A program made the translations under genes and the position numbers. Shown in pieces: positions 2,536-56,996 of a DNA stretch of 64,000 bases; the stretch's first letter is position 1; every line of letters starts with the position of its first letter. Source of the DNA: Pontibacillus sp. HMF3514 (GTDB lineage: Bacteria; Bacillota; Bacilli; Bacillales; BH030062); contig NZ_CP047393.1 in NCBI RefSeq assembly GCF_009858175.1, forward strand, positions 744,001 to 808,000, read 5' to 3'. The notes under the pieces were generated by a model. It saw nothing but the letters and a program-made list of their open reading frames with translations, searched no databases and was not told the origin of the DNA.

Positions 2536-4155
2536 ATGAGCCAAAATCAAACTGGCGCTAAGAAGAAAGGGATGAACAAGTGGCTGATCACAGCTATTGT
2601 CGTCGTCATCGTAGCTGGTTTTGGTGCAACAGCATATGGAGTTCTAAAAGAGAATAACCCTATGGCCATGTACCTACTAGCTGAAAAAAATACAATGGAG
2701 GACCAATGGGATCGTTTAGAGAAATATAACTTTGGTTCACTAGAATTACAGGATCGTATGCTAGAAGAAGCATATCAATCGAAACAAACATTGTCTATGA
2801 ATTTGAATGTTGAAGGGGAGCAGGTTAATCAACAATTCCCACAATTGATGTTTATTCAAGGATTACTTTCAACAGCTAAAATAGAGATGAATACGAAAAT
2901 CAACCCAAATACAGAAGAGACATACAACAGCGTAGACCTTTTGTTACAGGGTTCAAGTATGGCAAATGTGCAAATTTATCAAAATGTAAAAAACTTTTCT
3001 ATACAGGCTCCATTTGTCTATGACAAATATTTCACAATAGCAAATGACCAAGTAGGTGCATATTTAGAAAAAATGGGAGAGCCTTCTAATGGCATAACAG
3101 AGATTCCAAACATTGCAAAATATAACCAAGCTTCTTTTACTTCAGAAGAAATGAAAGAAATTACTTCAGATTATATGAGAACGCTTGGACAGCAACTAAA
3201 AGAAGAGCAGTTCTCCTTACAGAAAAATGTAGCCTATCAAGATAAGCAATATGATAAAGTAACCGTTCAAATTAGTGAACAAGAAGCTCGCGATATGATT
3301 CGTACGTTGCTTATTAAACTTCGAGAGGACAATCGCATCTGGAGCGTAGTGAATACACAAATGCAACTTCAAGGTGGTCAACAGTCCATGGATGAAGATA
3401 CCATGAAAGAAGATATTGATGAGGCAATTGAAGGACTAGATCAAATCAAACTTCCTGAGGGCATTCAAATTGAAGCTTACATAAAGGATGACCTTGTAGC
3501 TCATGAAAAATGGACATTACCAATCGAGGATACGAACGGTAAACAAGTAGATATTACAGTTTCTAGTGACTATTTAAAGCAAACACAAGAGAATTACTTA
3601 TCTAAAGTCACTGTGGATGTGAATCCAGTTGCAGAAGATCAATTATTCCAATTCTCATATAAAGAGAATGGTAAGTCCACGAAAGATGGCTTGCATGTCG
3701 ATTACATGATTGATATAAACTTTAAAGGAAAAACAGATGATTTTCATGGAAACCTAGCTCTAGGTACGGATTATAAGGAAAATTCGTCTAAGACGGAATT
3801 TGATTTAACAGTTGAAGGGTCTGATCCTTCTCTCCAGGAATTCCCGAAGGTTACCGGCTTCTTCAACACAGCTACAAAAGAAGAAAGCCAGAATCAGTTA
3901 AAGCGCAATATTGATTTAGGTTTAGATATCACGATGAACAATTCGATGGTGGGGAATACAAAAGGGCATGTAGAATTCCACATTAAACAAAATTATGCTT
4001 TTAATAATGAGATGAAATTCCCTGAAATGAATAACCAAAATTCAGTTAATATTATGGAATTATCAAAAGTTGAAATGGAACAAATTGGATTAGAAATCCA
4101 ACAAAACCTTCAAAAATATATCGGATCATTCACCGGTGGATTTGGAGGATTTTAG
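2536..4155 (+). CDS. Large membrane-anchored protein, DUF6583-like, first gene of ABC operon
   Basis: 539-aa protein with a short lysine-rich cytoplasmic tail and one membrane helix at residues 18-37, so most of it should lie outside the membrane. The rest is hydrophilic, rich in Gln, Asn and Glu, with beta-type segments and no catalytic motif that I recognise; it resembles the DUF6583 group found in bacilli next to ABC exporters. The start has GGGGAGAGAG 8 bases upstream. It lies 38 bases before two ABC-2 permease genes and an ATPase, so it may be a substrate, chaperone or extracellular partner of that exporter. The family name is moderately sure; the role is inference. Confidence 0.6.
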   Translation: MSQNQTGAKKKGMNKWLITAIVVVIVAGFGATAYGVLKENNPMAMYLLAEKNTMEDQWDRLEKYNFGSLELQDRMLEEAYQSKQTLSMNLNVEGEQVNQQFPQLMFIQGLLSTAKIEMNTKINPNTEETYNSVDLLLQGSSMANVQIYQNVKNFSIQAPFVYDKYFTIANDQVGAYLEKMGEPSNGITEIPNIAKYNQASFTSEEMKEITSDYMRTLGQQLKEEQFSLQKNVAYQDKQYDKVTVQISEQEARDMIRTLLIKLREDNRIWSVVNTQMQLQGGQQSMDEDTMKEDIDEAIEGLDQIKLPEGIQIEAYIKDDLVAHEKWTLPIEDTNGKQVDITVSSDYLKQTQENYLSKVTVDVNPVAEDQLFQFSYKENGKSTKDGLHVDYMIDINFKGKTDDFHGNLALGTDYKENSSKTEFDLTVEGSDPSLQEFPKVTGFFNTATKEESQNQLKRNIDLGLDITMNNSMVGNTKGHVEFHIKQNYAFNNEMKFPEMNNQNSVNIMELSKVEMEQIGLEIQQNLQKYIGSFTGGFGGF

Positions 4156-14462: not shown

Positions 14463-15197
14463 ATGAAAGATTATATGATCAAGAATCAAACAGCGATCAT
14501 CACAGGAGCATCCCGGGGCATTGGAAAAGAAATGGCTCGCCAATTCGCCGAAAAAGGTGTGAACTTATCCATCTTAGGAAGCTCAGATGACATCCATCAA
14601 ACGAAAAAAGAACTTAAAAACGAAGGCTACTCTAATATTGAATCCTTTCAAGCAGATGTAACGAAAGAAGATGAGCTTGATCATGTAGTAGAAGCTACGA
14701 AAAACGCTTATGGAACGGTCGATATTCTAGTGAACAATGCTGGAATTGGCATGTTCAAACCAGTAGAAGAGGTAACGGTAGAAGAGTGGAGAAAAGTTTA
14801 TGAGGTGAACGTACAAGGCGTCTTCCTGTGCTCGAAAGCTGTGATTCCGACAATGAAAAAGAACAAGTTCGGTACCATCATTACTGTTTCTTCAGACGTT
14901 GGGCGCTACACCATTCCAAATGGGTCTCTATATGCCTCCACTAAATATGCGGTACAAGGGTTCATGGGATCTATTTCACAAGAACTTCGCGAACATGGCA
15001 TTCGCGTAGGTACAATCAACCCTGGCATGGTAGACACGTATTTTGGTGACTCTAAACAAGGACTTCCGGAAAAAGAAGACTGGCTAAAAGTCCAAGACAT
15101 CGCAGAAGCAGCTGTGTACATGGCAAGCGCTCCGAAACACATGATGATTGATGAACTACAGCTTCACCCATTAGTACAAGATTATCCAAGACCATAA
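14463..15197 (+). CDS. Short-chain dehydrogenase/reductase (3-oxoacyl-ACP reductase-like)
   Basis: 244-aa Rossmann-fold oxidoreductase. The cofactor loop TGASRGIG (14-21), the NNAG motif, the catalytic serine region VSSDVG and YASTK give a complete SDR active site, and the length is typical. It resembles FabG but lies outside a fatty-acid cluster, so a general ketone/aldehyde reductase role is as likely. ATG at 14463 and ATG at 14475 are both possible; the second lines up better with the family. It lies 18 bases after yhcX, probably in one transcript. Confidence 0.85.
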   Translation: MKDYMIKNQTAIITGASRGIGKEMARQFAEKGVNLSILGSSDDIHQTKKELKNEGYSNIESFQADVTKEDELDHVVEATKNAYGTVDILVNNAGIGMFKPVEEVTVEEWRKVYEVNVQGVFLCSKAVIPTMKKNKFGTIITVSSDVGRYTIPNGSLYASTKYAVQGFMGSISQELREHGIRVGTINPGMVDTYFGDSKQGLPEKEDWLKVQDIAEAAVYMASAPKHMMIDELQLHPLVQDYPRP

Positions 15198-15212: not shown

Positions 15213-15246
15213 GAAACCTGGCTGGAGCCAGGTTTTTCTTTTTTGG
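15213..15246 (+). terminator. Terminator after SDR gene
   Basis: Perfect AACCTGGC-TGGA-GCCAGGTT stem followed by T5CT6. Confidence 0.9.
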
Positions 15247-15318
15247 TGGAATGTAATAGGCCAGCCTAGAGGGATCAAAGCCGAATAAAGCTGATTCGGA
15301 AAAGAAAGTGCCATCAGA

Positions 15319-15632
15319 GCGAATAAGTGAAGAAGCGCCCCAGAAAAGTGAGGAAGTTGAGCGAATAAGTGAAGAAGTGCCCCAGAAAAGTGAGGAAGTT
15401 GAGCAAATAAGTGAAGAAGCGCCCCAGAAAAGTGAGGAAGTTGAGCGAATAAGTGAGGAAGCGCCCCAGAAAAGTGAGGAAGTTGAGCGAATAAGTGAGG
15501 AAGCGCCCCAGAAAAGTGAGGAAGTTGAGCGAATAAGTGAGGAAGCGCCCCAGAAAAGTGAGGAAGTTGAGCGAATAAGTGAAGAAGCGCCCCAAAAAAG
15601 TGAAGAAGTTGTGCAAATAAGTGAGGAAGCCC
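15319..15632. repeat. 42-bp tandem repeat array, 7.5 copies (2 x 21 bp)
   Basis: Seven units of 42 bp start at 15319, 15361, 15403, 15445, 15487, 15529 and 15571, followed by a partial eighth. Each unit consists of two related halves of 21 bp (GCGAATAAGTGAAGAAGCGCC and a second half centred on AGAAAAGTGAGGAAG). Because 42 is divisible by three, several frames are open on both strands, but no frame has a ribosome site or a recognisable product. It lies between the SDR terminator and the yhcY gene. Confidence 0.9.
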
Positions 15633-15737
15633 CTGAATCTCTATTCTCAATCCCCCCACACAAAAGCGCTTTCTTACCCACACCTCCACATTTTTGATAT
15701 ACTATTCATAACGTTATTACAGAAAGTTTGGGATCCC

Positions 15738-17183
15738 ATGTTTGATGAACGGCAAAGGTTAGAGACGTTAAAGACGATCGCGGAAACGTTAAATCAGTGC
15801 CAGCATAAAGAGGATATGCTTCAGCAAGTGCTGAAGCAGCTCATTCAAATCACGCATTTTGAAAGCGGTTGGATTTTTCTTGAGGAAGAAGATATCCATC
15901 TTGTTGCTGATGCATCACTCCCACCAGCGTTATCTCATGATGACAAGGAGCCGATGTGCGGTGAAGACTGCTATTGTATCAATAGTTATAAACAAGGCTC
16001 CCTAACAGAAGCGACAAATATTATGAGCTGTAAGCGAATTAAGAAAGAAGTTGAACTGGGAAGAGAGGACACGAACGGTATTACGCACCATGCCACTGTC
16101 CCACTCAAAACTCCTACGGAAACGTTCGGGCTTTTGAATGTTGCAGCACCTAACCGTTCGACATACGGAAAAGAAGAACTCGATCTGATTGAGGCAGTAG
16201 CGCTCCAAATGGGTACTGCACTCAAACGAATTGAACAATACGAAAAAGAAGAAATGCGCGTACGTCTTTTGGAACAGTTACATACCCTTTCTAAACGTGT
16301 ACGAGATGCAAAAAATATAGAAGAGCTTAGTTATATCACCCTTGAAGAGTTACGCAAATTACTTCCAATTGATGCAATGTCCATACATATTCAAGGATTC
16401 CATTTAGGAGATGAAAAAGTAGAGGAACATGAGCAACTTTATCATCATTATGAATTATCCGATCAACAGGATATGCTTAACATTCGTTTTCGGAGAATAT
16501 TAAAACCAATAGAATCTGATACATTAGAGTTAGCCATTGAATACGTCGATTTATCTTTTCGAGATCTCCGACTTCAGGCTCGGGAAAAAGAAATGGCGCG
16601 TTTTAACGAGCGAGCACGCCTTGCGCAGGATCTTCACGACTCAGTGAACCAGCTTCTATTTTCTGTAGTTCTAACAGCTAAAGGTGCTAAAGCGATAACG
16701 AAAGAAGATGCTCTAACCCAACAGTTGGACTCGATTCAAACCATGAGTTCAGATGCTCTAAAAGAAATGCGTACGCTTATTCAACGACTAAAACCACATG
16801 GATTAGAAGAAGGCGTGCTATCTGGTCTCAAACAACACGCAGACAAAATAGGTCTGGAAAACAACGTCTCATCAACAGGGACACATAGCATGCCATATGC
16901 TATAGAGGAAGCCTTATGGCGTATCGGGCAGGAATCCCTTCATAATGCTAAAAAACACGCGCAATGTGACAGTGTTTCCATAACGCTTCATAAACAACAA
17001 GATCATGCCATATTAATCATTGAAGATAATGGGAAAGGGTTTGATCAAAAAGCGTATGAAAACTATCCATCCTATGGGCTAAAGGGTATGTGTGAACGAG
17101 CGGAAACGCTTGGTGGCGAATGCAAAATACAAAGTGAGATCGGCAAGGGAACCACAATAAGTGTCACTATCCCATTTTCGTAA
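15738..17183 (+). CDS. yhcY: GAF-domain sensor histidine kinase with Fe-S-type cysteine motif (YhcY/AirS-like)
   Basis: 481-aa soluble sensor kinase. Residues 5-165 form a GAF domain; a second less clear sensory region follows; residues 288-350 are a HisKA_3 dimerisation domain with phospho-acceptor His300 in AQDLHDSVNQ; residues 390-481 are the HATPase domain (EDNGKGFD, YGLKGM). The GAF domain has Cys74, Cys78, Cys80 and Cys98, the CX3CXCX17C spacing I recall for the [2Fe-2S] oxygen/redox kinase AirS (YhcS) of Staphylococcus aureus. The frame is open upstream to 15621, but homology begins at the ATG at 15738. The response regulator follows after 12 bases. Confidence 0.88.
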   Translation: MFDERQRLETLKTIAETLNQCQHKEDMLQQVLKQLIQITHFESGWIFLEEEDIHLVADASLPPALSHDDKEPMCGEDCYCINSYKQGSLTEATNIMSCKRIKKEVELGREDTNGITHHATVPLKTPTETFGLLNVAAPNRSTYGKEELDLIEAVALQMGTALKRIEQYEKEEMRVRLLEQLHTLSKRVRDAKNIEELSYITLEELRKLLPIDAMSIHIQGFHLGDEKVEEHEQLYHHYELSDQQDMLNIRFRRILKPIESDTLELAIEYVDLSFRDLRLQAREKEMARFNERARLAQDLHDSVNQLLFSVVLTAKGAKAITKEDALTQQLDSIQTMSSDALKEMRTLIQRLKPHGLEEGVLSGLKQHADKIGLENNVSSTGTHSMPYAIEEALWRIGQESLHNAKKHAQCDSVSITLHKQQDHAILIIEDNGKGFDQKAYENYPSYGLKGMCERAETLGGECKIQSEIGKGTTISVTIPFS

Positions 17184-17195
17184 GGGGGAAGAAAG

Positions 17196-17840
17196 ATGGC
17201 GATAAAAATCCTGATAGCTGACGATCATCAGGTTGTGCGCAAAGGTCTTGTGTTCTTTTTTCAAACACAGACTGATATTGAGGTTGTAGCAGAGGCCTCA
17301 AACGGAAAAGAAGCTTTAGACATGATCAAAGCTAAAGAGATTGATGTTGCACTTTTTGATGTACAGATGCCCGAAATGGACGGAGTGGAAGCTGCAAAAG
17401 CTATTCGAGCTGAAAATGATCAGGTTAAGATCATGATGCTAACGAGCTTTTCCGACTATGATTCCGTCATCCCAGCGATTCAGGCTGGAGCGAATGGCTA
17501 TCAGCTGAAAGACGTGGAACCTGATGAACTAGCTGAAGCGATTCGAAGAGTAGTAAAAGGGGAAAGTACGATTACAGCAAAGGCAGCCTCTCATTTAATG
17601 ACACACGTTACTGGAGATAATGAAAAAGAAGAGAGAGCGAAAATCGACTCATTAACCAAACGAGAAAGTGATGTCCTTGAGGAGATCATGAAGGGAAAAA
17701 GCAATAAAGAAATATCGAGTAGTTTATACATCACGGAAAAGACGGTCAAAACGCACGTATCCAACATCTTGTCTAAACTTGAGGTACATGATCGTACACA
17801 GGCAGCGTTGTTTGCGGTAAAGTATTTGAAAAAAGCGTAA
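17196..17840 (+). CDS. yhcZ: NarL/FixJ-type response regulator (YhcZ-like)
   Basis: 214-aa DNA-binding regulator, cognate of the preceding kinase. The receiver domain has the acidic pair D9-D10, phospho-acceptor Asp55 in ALFDVQMPE, and the switch Thr/Lys residues; the LuxR-type helix-turn-helix is at about 150-205 (LTKRESDVLEEIMKGKSNKE, then TEKTVKTHVSNILSKL). The same length as B. subtilis YhcZ. It starts 12 bases after the kinase with a GGGGGAAGA site. If the kinase is a redox sensor, this protein would carry the transcriptional response; targets are not identifiable here. Confidence 0.92.
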   Translation: MAIKILIADDHQVVRKGLVFFFQTQTDIEVVAEASNGKEALDMIKAKEIDVALFDVQMPEMDGVEAAKAIRAENDQVKIMMLTSFSDYDSVIPAIQAGANGYQLKDVEPDELAEAIRRVVKGESTITAKAASHLMTHVTGDNEKEERAKIDSLTKRESDVLEEIMKGKSNKEISSSLYITEKTVKTHVSNILSKLEVHDRTQAALFAVKYLKKA

Positions 17841-20417: not shown

Positions 20418-20457
20418 GGTGAGCGCTCGTTACGACGAGTGCTCATTTTTATTTTTT
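20418..20457 (+). terminator. Terminator of the sporulation lipoprotein gene
   Basis: GAGCGCTCGT-TACG-ACGAGTGCTC stem (one G-T pair) followed by T5AT6. Confidence 0.8.
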
Positions 20458-20461
20458 AGAA

Positions 20462-20610
20462 GTAAAAGCTCATATCTGTGAATGGGCGATCAAAAATATA
20501 GACGAGCGCTCATATTTTTGGCAGATCAATCAAAAATCCTGGTCATTCGCTCACATCCAGTGTTCCCCGCCCCATAAAAATTTGTAATCGCTCATATTCA
20601 CAAAATATTA
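20462..20610. repeat. Degenerate 20-21 bp periodic intergenic repeat
   Basis: Read on the minus strand, blocks beginning GAGCG, GGGGCG, GAGCG, GATTGA, GAGCG and GATCG recur every 20 or 21 bases with T-rich ends. The blocks are too divergent for a classical tandem repeat but the period is regular. The array fills the gap between two convergent genes. Confidence 0.6.
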
Positions 20611-27933: not shown

Positions 27934-28080
27934 GATCGCTTGGTTCTAGCTAGAAATCGCCCGAAAAGTGGGAAGACGGCCCGCATCGTGCCAAAATCGC
28001 CTGAATCTATACAAAGAACGCCTGTACCGGCCGGAGATCGCCTGCATTTCTTAAAATATCGCCCGTACCATGGCAAGGTC
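27934..28080. repeat. Degenerate 20-21 bp periodic intergenic repeat (ATCGCCCG core)
   Basis: Six or seven consecutive blocks of 20-21 bases each begin with ATCGC(C/T)(C/T)G or a close variant (starts near 27934, 27956, 27976, 27996, 28017, 28037 and 28058) and then diverge. The core is conserved, the rest is not. The array lies between ykuD and the AraC-type gene. Confidence 0.65.
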
Positions 28081-42179: not shown

Positions 42180-42280
42180 TGATGAAGGAAAGCAAGAGGA
42201 ATAGTTCTATAGAAGGAATGAACTGGTAAAGCATTGTGTTATACTAGTTGGCAAATAGTGTTCGCGATATTAGGGCGGTC

Positions 42281-42312
42281 GGCTATATCCCCAAAAGAAA
42301 GGGGGTGTGGCC
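42281..42312 (+). promoter_or_regulatory. 12-bp hairpin enclosing ribosome site and start codon of toxin
   Basis: GGCTATATCCCC (42281-42292), loop AAAAGAAA, GGGGGTGTGGCC (42301-42312). All 12 positions pair when G-U pairs are allowed. The right arm contains the Shine-Dalgarno G run and the GTG start at 42305. A TATACT box (42240-42245) upstream is a candidate -10. Confidence 0.75.
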
Positions 42313-42427
42313 TATAGAACTTTACCATATCCTAATGATATTGTTTTCAGCAGGTATGTTTCTTGTTGGGTTGTTAGGTTTTGTGGTGAAGCTTATTGTT
42401 GAGTTAACAAAAGACCAAAATAAATAG
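42305..42427 (+). CDS. Holin-like type I toxin (TxpA/BsrG class)
   Basis: 40-aa peptide: MWPIELYHILMILFSAGMFL then one long membrane helix continuing to about residue 29 and a charged tail (VKLIVELTKDQNK). Length, helix position and basic/polar tail are those of the putative holin-like toxins of Firmicutes. The downstream hairpins, including the GGTCTATTTATT arm and the TTTTGGGCGATCG stem, also resemble those of this class. The GTG start is inside a stable hairpin, a common way of holding back toxin translation. A start at the internal ATG (42335) is an alternative. Confidence 0.72.
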   Translation: MWPIELYHILMILFSAGMFLVGLLGFVVKLIVELTKDQNK

Positions 42428-42466
42428 ACCCCCTAATATTGGCGTATCGGGCGAGGTCTATTTATT
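42419..42466. terminator. Hairpin at toxin 3' end, likely terminator of antisense RNA
   Basis: AATAAATAGACC (42419-42430) and GGTCTATTTATT (42455-42466) pair perfectly. On the minus strand the stem is followed by TTGGTCTTTTG; on the plus strand there is no T run, so it more likely ends a minus-strand RNA. Confidence 0.55.
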
Positions 42467-42503
42467 CCAATAGGCTGATCCCCTTGAGGGAACACTATTT
42501 TGG

Positions 42504-42537
42504 GCGATCGTAGTTGCTGCTACGGTCGCTTTTTTAT
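42504..42537 (+). terminator. Terminator of the toxin mRNA
   Basis: GCGATCGTAG-TTGCTG-CTACGGTCGC stem with G-T pairs, followed by T7. Confidence 0.8.
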
Positions 42538-56697: not shown

Positions 56698-56809
56698 GTT
56701 TAACTAATGAAACATTATTATTGTTCTTTAGTTATTTATGAGGATTTTATCCCGTTATATGGCAGTAATCTTGTATAAGCTGGTGCTGGGTGGTTCCGTT
56801 ACTTTTGTG

Positions 56810-56925
56810 GAGATCGGCGGGCTGTGTTCTCTTGGCAAGGGACAGTATTCGCTCGGGTAGGTGATGGAATCGCTCGGGTAGGTGACGGAATCGCTCGGGT
56901 AGGCGATGAAAAGCCCGTATTATCT
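56810..56925. repeat. 21-bp tandem repeat (ATCGCTCGGG core) with degenerate flanks
   Basis: Three near-perfect 21-bp units (56847-56867, 56868-56888, 56889-56909) of the form AATCGCTCGGGTAGGTGATGG, flanked by less conserved blocks such as GATCGGCGGGC. It lies in the 400-base gap between convergent chrA and sulP genes; the rest of that gap holds only the two terminators. Confidence 0.8.
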
Positions 56926-56996
56926 CGATTCCAAGTCTTCCTCATAAGGGGGCTTTAATGGAATAAGAGTTTAAAGGCAAAGTAGATCAAACATAA

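What the first reader, a model, noticed from the sequence alone, without database searches (positions are those of the whole stretch)
15319..15632. 42-bp tandem array built from two 21-bp halves, between SDR and yhcY genes
Seven and a half units; each 42-bp unit is itself two related 21-bp segments. Three other intergenic arrays in this window (20.5, 28.0 and 56.9 kb) have the same 20-21 bp period with different conservation. That the period is kept while the sequence drifts suggests one repeat class spread across the genome and constrained in length (two helical turns), possibly as protein-binding or nucleoid-structuring sites. I know of no description of this class.
Basis: partly seen in the sequence, partly recalled or inferred. 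Interest (0 to 1): 0.75.

Follow-up and report, generated by a model that had tools for sequence, protein, structure and literature searches.

The report
Intergenic arrays with rigid 21-bp step
The flagged repeat is real and is one of dozens of non-coding arrays in this Bacillales genome that step by exactly 21 base pairs (two turns of the helix) although their sequences differ from array to array, which suggests rows of binding sites for an unidentified DNA-organising protein.

Summary
The array is confirmed: 15317-15630, 42-bp period, 7.5 copies, with 15 AGTGARGAAG cores exactly 21 bp apart. It belongs to a genome-wide phenomenon. In an unbiased 30% sample plus the window, a scan for six-unit arrays found 19 at period 21 and none at 20 or 22; 17 of the 19 are intergenic. 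Several unrelated sequence families share the step. Each has a short core (B AGTGARGAAG, C CGCCTGAA, E CTATCCRNAA, S TCGCTCGGGTA) and a linker that differs between loci. In five orthologous class-C arrays of a sister species (35 units), core columns differ 10% and the rest 34% (p=2e-14), with the spacing kept; the rest diverges like synonymous sites of a neighbouring gene. No reading frame shows protein constraint. A similar motif (CGCTTAAATC) forms strict 21-bp arrays in another family. At the flagged locus the sister species has a diverged array of the same type; two more distant relatives keep the gene pair without it. Best reading: rows of helically phased DNA sites for an unidentified nucleoid or topology protein, at roughly even odds. 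For the flagged array itself, selection is inferred from its class. A neutral satellite with inherited period is the main rival. I found no published description.

The parts
15317..15630 (+). the flagged array: 7.5 x 42 bp, i.e. 15 cores AGTGARGAAG at exact 21-bp steps (class B)
   Evidence: TRF; core positions
15213..15243 (+). intrinsic terminator of the SDR gene (AAACCTGGC-TGGA-GCCAGGTTT then T-rich tail), directly upstream of the array
   Evidence: own hairpin scan and direct reading; the tool's consensus scan did not list it
15657..15715 (+). block conserved with sister species G003, with a TATACT/TATAAT-like element shared with G006 and G007: likely yhcY promoter region
   Evidence: ortholog comparison; the consensus promoter scan lists none, so this is an inference from conservation
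14463..15197 (+). short-chain dehydrogenase (SDR), left neighbour
   Evidence: Pfam adh_short 2e-60
15738..17183 (+). GAF/HisKA_3 sensor histidine kinase (YhcY-like), right neighbour
   Evidence: Pfam
17196..17840 (+). NarL-type response regulator, partner of the kinase
   Evidence: Pfam
27937..28066 (+). degenerate class-C array (CGCCYG anchors about 21 bp apart)
20441..20594 (+). weak class-D array (GCTCA every 40-41 bp)
56849..56908 (+). class-S array TCGCTCGGGTAGGTGATGGAA, 2.9 copies, inside the dispersed element listed under Noticed in passing
   Evidence: TRF, flank alignment

Best explanation
These are non-coding rows of short DNA sites, one 6-11 bp core every 21 bp, so that all cores face the same side of the helix. 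SHOWN: exact 21-bp step; intergenic location, with convergent gene pairs over-represented; in class C the core is conserved while the linker evolves like silent sites; cores shared between loci while linkers differ; no coding constraint. INFERRED: a sequence-specific or bend-sensing DNA-binding protein occupies successive cores on one face of the helix and forms an ordered patch, acting at DNA level (nucleoid shape or supercoil handling between genes) rather than through RNA. At the flagged locus the array fills the gap between the SDR terminator and the likely yhcY promoter, where little transcription is expected. Homogenised arrays such as the flagged one change copy number as satellites do, while core and step are retained.
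For: Period 21 only (G003 census). Class C, 35 orthologous units: CGCCTGAA columns differ 27/280, other columns 153/455, no indels in the aligned units; SDR synonymous difference 0.36. Between-locus core identity mostly 0.84-1.00 in class B against 0.21-0.37 in most linker columns, and a conserved A at +12 in class E outside the search motif. 17/19 and 19/22 arrays intergenic, convergent enrichment 3.1-fold p=0.003. Similar core with 86 of 87 steps of 21 bp in another family, 21/21 arrays intergenic. No RNA fold for the flagged array, no Rfam hit. Both orientations relative to neighbouring genes occur, which argues against an RNA-level role.
Against: No binding protein identified. Several unrelated cores would need several proteins or shape recognition. 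Selection was measured directly only on class C; the flagged class-B array is homogenised and its ortholog is largely an assembly gap. Core conservation is partly ascertained, because arrays were found by their cores. The 10.5-bp G+C harmonic expected for wrapping is not significant over independent sequence clusters (t=1.6, 20 clusters).
Confidence: 0.5

Rival explanations
1. Neutral satellite DNA: 21-bp repeats arose once or a few times, spread and diversified; unequal exchange keeps the register, and the period is inherited rather than selected.
For: The flagged array is homogenised (95% matches); array lengths differ between sister species and one indel is exactly 21 bp; S arrays ride on a dispersed element; two relatives lack the array at this locus.
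Against: In class C the linkers have diverged to near chance within arrays while the core and exact step remain and are conserved between species; a decaying satellite would lose core and linker alike.
Confidence: 0.27
2. Shape rather than sequence: phased bendability at 10.5/21 bp makes the arrays preferred wrapping sites for gyrase or another DNA-wrapping protein at gene ends, as with enteric BIMEs.
For: Explains unrelated sequences with one period; convergent enrichment; E. coli gyrase has an extended motif with phased 10-bp G/C variation, is enriched downstream of highly transcribed operons and cleaves BIME-2 (PMC6379681); G+C second harmonic positive over 88 arrays.
Against: After merging related arrays the harmonic is not significant (threshold 0.5); specific core letters are conserved, more than bendability needs.
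Confidence: 0.12
3. RNA-level element: the arrays are transcribed and their repeated motif binds an RNA-binding protein or affects mRNA ends.
For: Many arrays lie just 3' of genes; one class-B array lies between a T-box-like leader terminator and an open reading frame.
Against: Arrays occur in both orientations relative to neighbouring genes; no structure signal for the flagged array; at the flagged locus the array lies after a terminator.
Confidence: 0.07
4. Coding heptad repeats (21 bp = 7 codons) of a repetitive protein.
For: Frames of the flagged array are open on both strands; class E has one stop-free frame in six arrays.
Against: pN/pS 0.60-1.37 in all frames for classes C and E against 0.055 for the SDR gene; stops in every frame of class C and of class B overall; only sub-threshold coiled-coil hits for the + ORF and none for the - ORFs; the frame at 15.3 kb begins after a stop with no evident ribosome-binding site.
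Confidence: 0.04

Closest known systems
REP/BIME elements of enterics and pseudomonads
   Same: Many copies, intergenic, mainly between co-directional and convergent genes (PMC3733652); some bind gyrase (PMC6379681)
   Different: REPs are 20-40 bp palindromes, and neighbouring units in BIMEs alternate in orientation; here cores are short, direct, non-palindromic, and stepped at exactly 21 bp
TAACTGA heptamer direct repeats of Beggiatoaceae and cyanobacteria
   Same: Short direct repeats in many intergenic sets, patchy distribution (PMC4679880)
   Different: Seven-base contiguous units of one sequence, with a role in translational regulation suggested; here 21-bp step, variable linkers, several cores
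Iterons and ParR-type centromere arrays (general knowledge, not fetched)
   Same: Direct repeats of about 20-22 bp bound by a protein in helical phase
   Different: Those sit at one replicon control region; here dozens of chromosomal arrays between ordinary genes, and no adjacent initiator or partition gene at the flagged locus
Bacterial minisatellites / VNTRs
   Same: Tandem, homogenised, array length differs between sister species
   Different: No shared period across unrelated loci is expected, nor conservation of a core with free linkers

Membership tests
REP/BIME | palindromic unit able to form a stem-loop | tested here: not met
   flagged array does not fold better than shuffles, z=+0.76; cores AGTGARGAAG, CGCCTGAA and CTATCCRNAA are not palindromes
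REP/BIME | intergenic, mostly co-directional or convergent gene pairs | tested here: met
   31 of 36 arrays placed in intergenic regions lie between co-directional or convergent genes
REP/BIME | REP-associated transposase (RAYT) in the genome | not tested
   no search made
protein-coding repeat | conserved open frame with pN/pS well below 1 | tested here: not met
   (classes C and E; class B by stop codons only)
described structured RNA family (Rfam) | covariance-model match at the array | tested here: not met
   no match at arrays at gathering thresholds
iteron / ParR-type binding array | direct repeats with conserved core at a two-turn step | tested here: met
iteron / ParR-type binding array | location beside a replication-initiator or partition gene | tested here: not met
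   flagged array lies between an SDR gene and a sensor kinase
iteron / ParR-type binding array | binding by a cognate protein | not testable with these tools
   needs binding experiments

The most novel reading that the evidence does not exclude
A previously undescribed chromosomal system of Bacillales in which a DNA-binding protein, or a family of them with different specificities, assembles on two-helical-turn arrays scattered between genes and shapes nucleoid or supercoil domains; array cores diversify with the protein, so each lineage has its own flavour while the geometry of the protein filament fixes the 21-bp step.
Probability: 0.25. Interest if true: 0.85.

Novelty: new variant of a known kind. 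Interest (0 to 1): 0.62.

Why it matters
I know of no counterpart in Bacillales of the REP/BIME repeats that mark gene ends in enterics. A large class of non-coding arrays held to exactly two helical turns, with conserved cores and free linkers, points to an unrecognised DNA-level organiser and gives concrete bait sequences for finding it. If it is instead a neutral satellite, a shared period across unrelated sequences would itself need a mutational explanation.

Tried and rejected
Coding heptads: translations looked persuasive (SIQNHxL, IQAIxxx), but pN/pS and stop counts reject coding. RNA structure: no signal for the flagged array, no Rfam match at arrays. CRISPR-like arrays: rejected on unit size and because units are orthologous one to one between species. 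Replication polarity as a general rule: class C follows replichore direction at 18 of 19 placed loci in the own genome, including 9 of 9 whose neighbouring genes do not both agree with it, but in G079 orientation flips within 4-9 kb on one contig. Phased bending: raw harmonic positive, lost after merging related arrays. Literature searches for the sequences and for 21-bp intergenic repeats gave no description (subscription papers are not covered). The one genome-contig scan returned mostly unrelated hits; a viral-contig scan for the class-B core pair gave 13 single-pair hits, not followed up.

Full report
1. The observation. Tandem Repeats Finder places the array at 15317-15630, period 42, 7.5 copies, 95% matches, score 558. 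Reading the sequence gives 15 cores AGTGA[AG]GAAG at exactly 21-bp steps. Units carry two alternating linkers, and AGTGAAGAAG and AGTGAGGAAG alternate in part of the array, which makes the 42-bp period. The array starts after the SDR gene's terminator and ends about 108 bp before the ATG of a YhcY-like kinase.

2. Is the period special? The window lies at 744001-808000 of a 3.98-Mb single-contig genome. Taking 20 kb every 66 kb, a scan for six-unit ungapped arrays with at least 5/6 agreement found 19 at period 21, 14 at 42, none at 20 or 22, and at most four at any other period from 12 to 45. The other non-zero periods are all multiples of three, as coding repeats would give. Plain autocorrelation is blurred by codon periodicity. 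Exact 8-mer matches in intergenic DNA give 116 at lag 21 against a median of 7; lag 51 (110) comes from a separate element noted below. Patterns against reversed-pattern controls gave 151 vs 1, 81 vs 2, 52 vs 0 and 22 vs 0.

3. Several families, one step. The arrays fall into unrelated sequence families: B AGTGARGAAG (the flagged array), C CGCCTGAA, D CGCTCATA (20+21), E CTATCCRNAA, S TCGCTCGGGTARGYGACGGAA, and variants F and G. Between loci the class-B core columns are mostly 0.84-1.00 identical (one A/G column 0.46) while most linker columns sit at 0.21-0.37. Class E has a conserved A at +12 (0.96) that was not part of the search motif.

4. Sister-species test. Genome G003 has an SDR protein 98% identical. 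Its census gives 22 arrays at period 21, two at 20, none at 22, in 0.54 Mb, and many of its arrays sit where the own genome also has one. Five orthologous class-C arrays (35 units) align unit by unit without indels in those units. Columns of CGCCTGAA differ 27/280; the other columns differ 153/455 (p=2e-14). The SDR gene's synonymous difference is 0.36, so the linkers evolve about like silent sites. Linkers within an array are barely more alike than chance (0.29-0.36 against 0.27). Of six G003 class-C arrays mapped to fetched own sequence, five have an orthologous array and one has none, so survivorship alone is unlikely to produce the contrast, although arrays whose cores had decayed would be missed.

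5. The flagged locus in relatives. G003 has the same kind of array there, with different linkers and a 570-base assembly gap. G006 and G007 (YhcY 64% identical) keep the SDR-yhcY pair without an array. Selection on the flagged class-B array itself is therefore inferred from class C and from the between-locus comparison of class B.

6. Not coding, not a structured RNA. pN/pS is 0.60-1.37 in all six frames of classes C and E, against 0.055 for the SDR gene. Stop codons occur in all frames of class C and of class B overall. One class-E frame is stop-free in six arrays but shows no constraint (pN/pS 1.17). The flagged array does not fold better than shuffles (z=+0.76), and no array matches Rfam at gathering thresholds.

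7. Where they lie. In the samples 17/19 (own) and 19/22 (G003) arrays are intergenic (p<1e-13), and convergent gene pairs are enriched 3.1-fold (p=0.003); depletion from divergent pairs is not significant. Gene calls here are home-made (hexamer-scored ORFs), a limitation. In the own genome class C follows replichore direction at 18 of 19 placed loci, including all nine whose two neighbouring genes do not both agree with it.

8. Other lineages. Among 397 genomes of the order, class-C-like pairs are abundant in G000 and G003 and in four genomes of one other family (G079, G110, G213, G256); most other hits are single. G079 arrays have core CGCTTAAATC, 86 of 87 steps of 21 bp, 21 of 21 intergenic, 9 of 21 between convergent genes. 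There the orientation flips within a few kilobases on one contig, so replication polarity is not general. Other genomes show 21-bp repeats with other sequences; G184 had none in 200 kb.

9. Mechanism. The best-supported reading is rows of protein-binding sites with one core per two helical turns, acting on DNA between transcription units. Shown: step, core conservation in class C, linker freedom, non-coding nature, location. Inferred: the protein and its role. A shape-based variant (topoisomerase wrapping, BIME-like) would explain why unrelated sequences share the period: E. coli gyrase has a motif with phased 10-bp G/C variation, is enriched downstream of highly transcribed operons and binds some BIME-2 (PMC6379681). 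The corresponding G+C harmonic is positive over 88 arrays but not over 20 merged clusters (t=1.6). The neutral-satellite rival fits the homogenised arrays, including the flagged one, but not class C.

10. Known kinds. REP/BIME elements share the location but are palindromic (PMC3733652). TAACTGA repeats are contiguous heptamers (PMC4679880). Iteron and ParR-type arrays share unit size and phasing (general knowledge) but are confined to replicon control regions. Literature searches found no description of this class, with the caveat that subscription papers are not held.

Noticed in passing
window 56746-56966; also around 681, 870, 887, 2197, 2578 and 2709 kb, and in part at 3573 and 3647 kb, of the genome: A dispersed MITE-like element with conserved flanks (TTATTCCRTTA-like ends in inverted orientation, GGCGGGCTGTG...AAGCCCGTATTATCTCGA) whose interior is a 21-bp array; at 3573 kb the downstream flank is next to a different 21-bp array.
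   Followed up: partly
own genome, e.g. 77645, 993715, 1521780, 1587518: Another dispersed repeat with two TTACGGACAT copies 51 bp apart; it produces the lag-51 peak in intergenic DNA.
   Followed up: no
window 42254-42528 (+): Match to Rfam RF01412 BsrG, 65.8 bits: a type I toxin-antitoxin locus related to BsrG of B. subtilis.
   Followed up: no
genomes G006, G012, G125, G220: The reversed control pattern matched many times, up to 320 in G220, so these genomes probably carry further periodic arrays with other sequences.
   Followed up: no
own genome, class C loci: Class-C cores lie on the leading strand at 18 of 19 placed loci, even where neighbouring genes disagree; not seen in G079, unexplained.
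   Followed up: partly
L285 and L286 (G079 C8 and C16), downstream of the CGCTTAAATC arrays: A second repeat, ATATCGGTCGTC/ATATCGGTCGTT with steps of about 20-21 bp, directly follows the first array.
   Followed up: no
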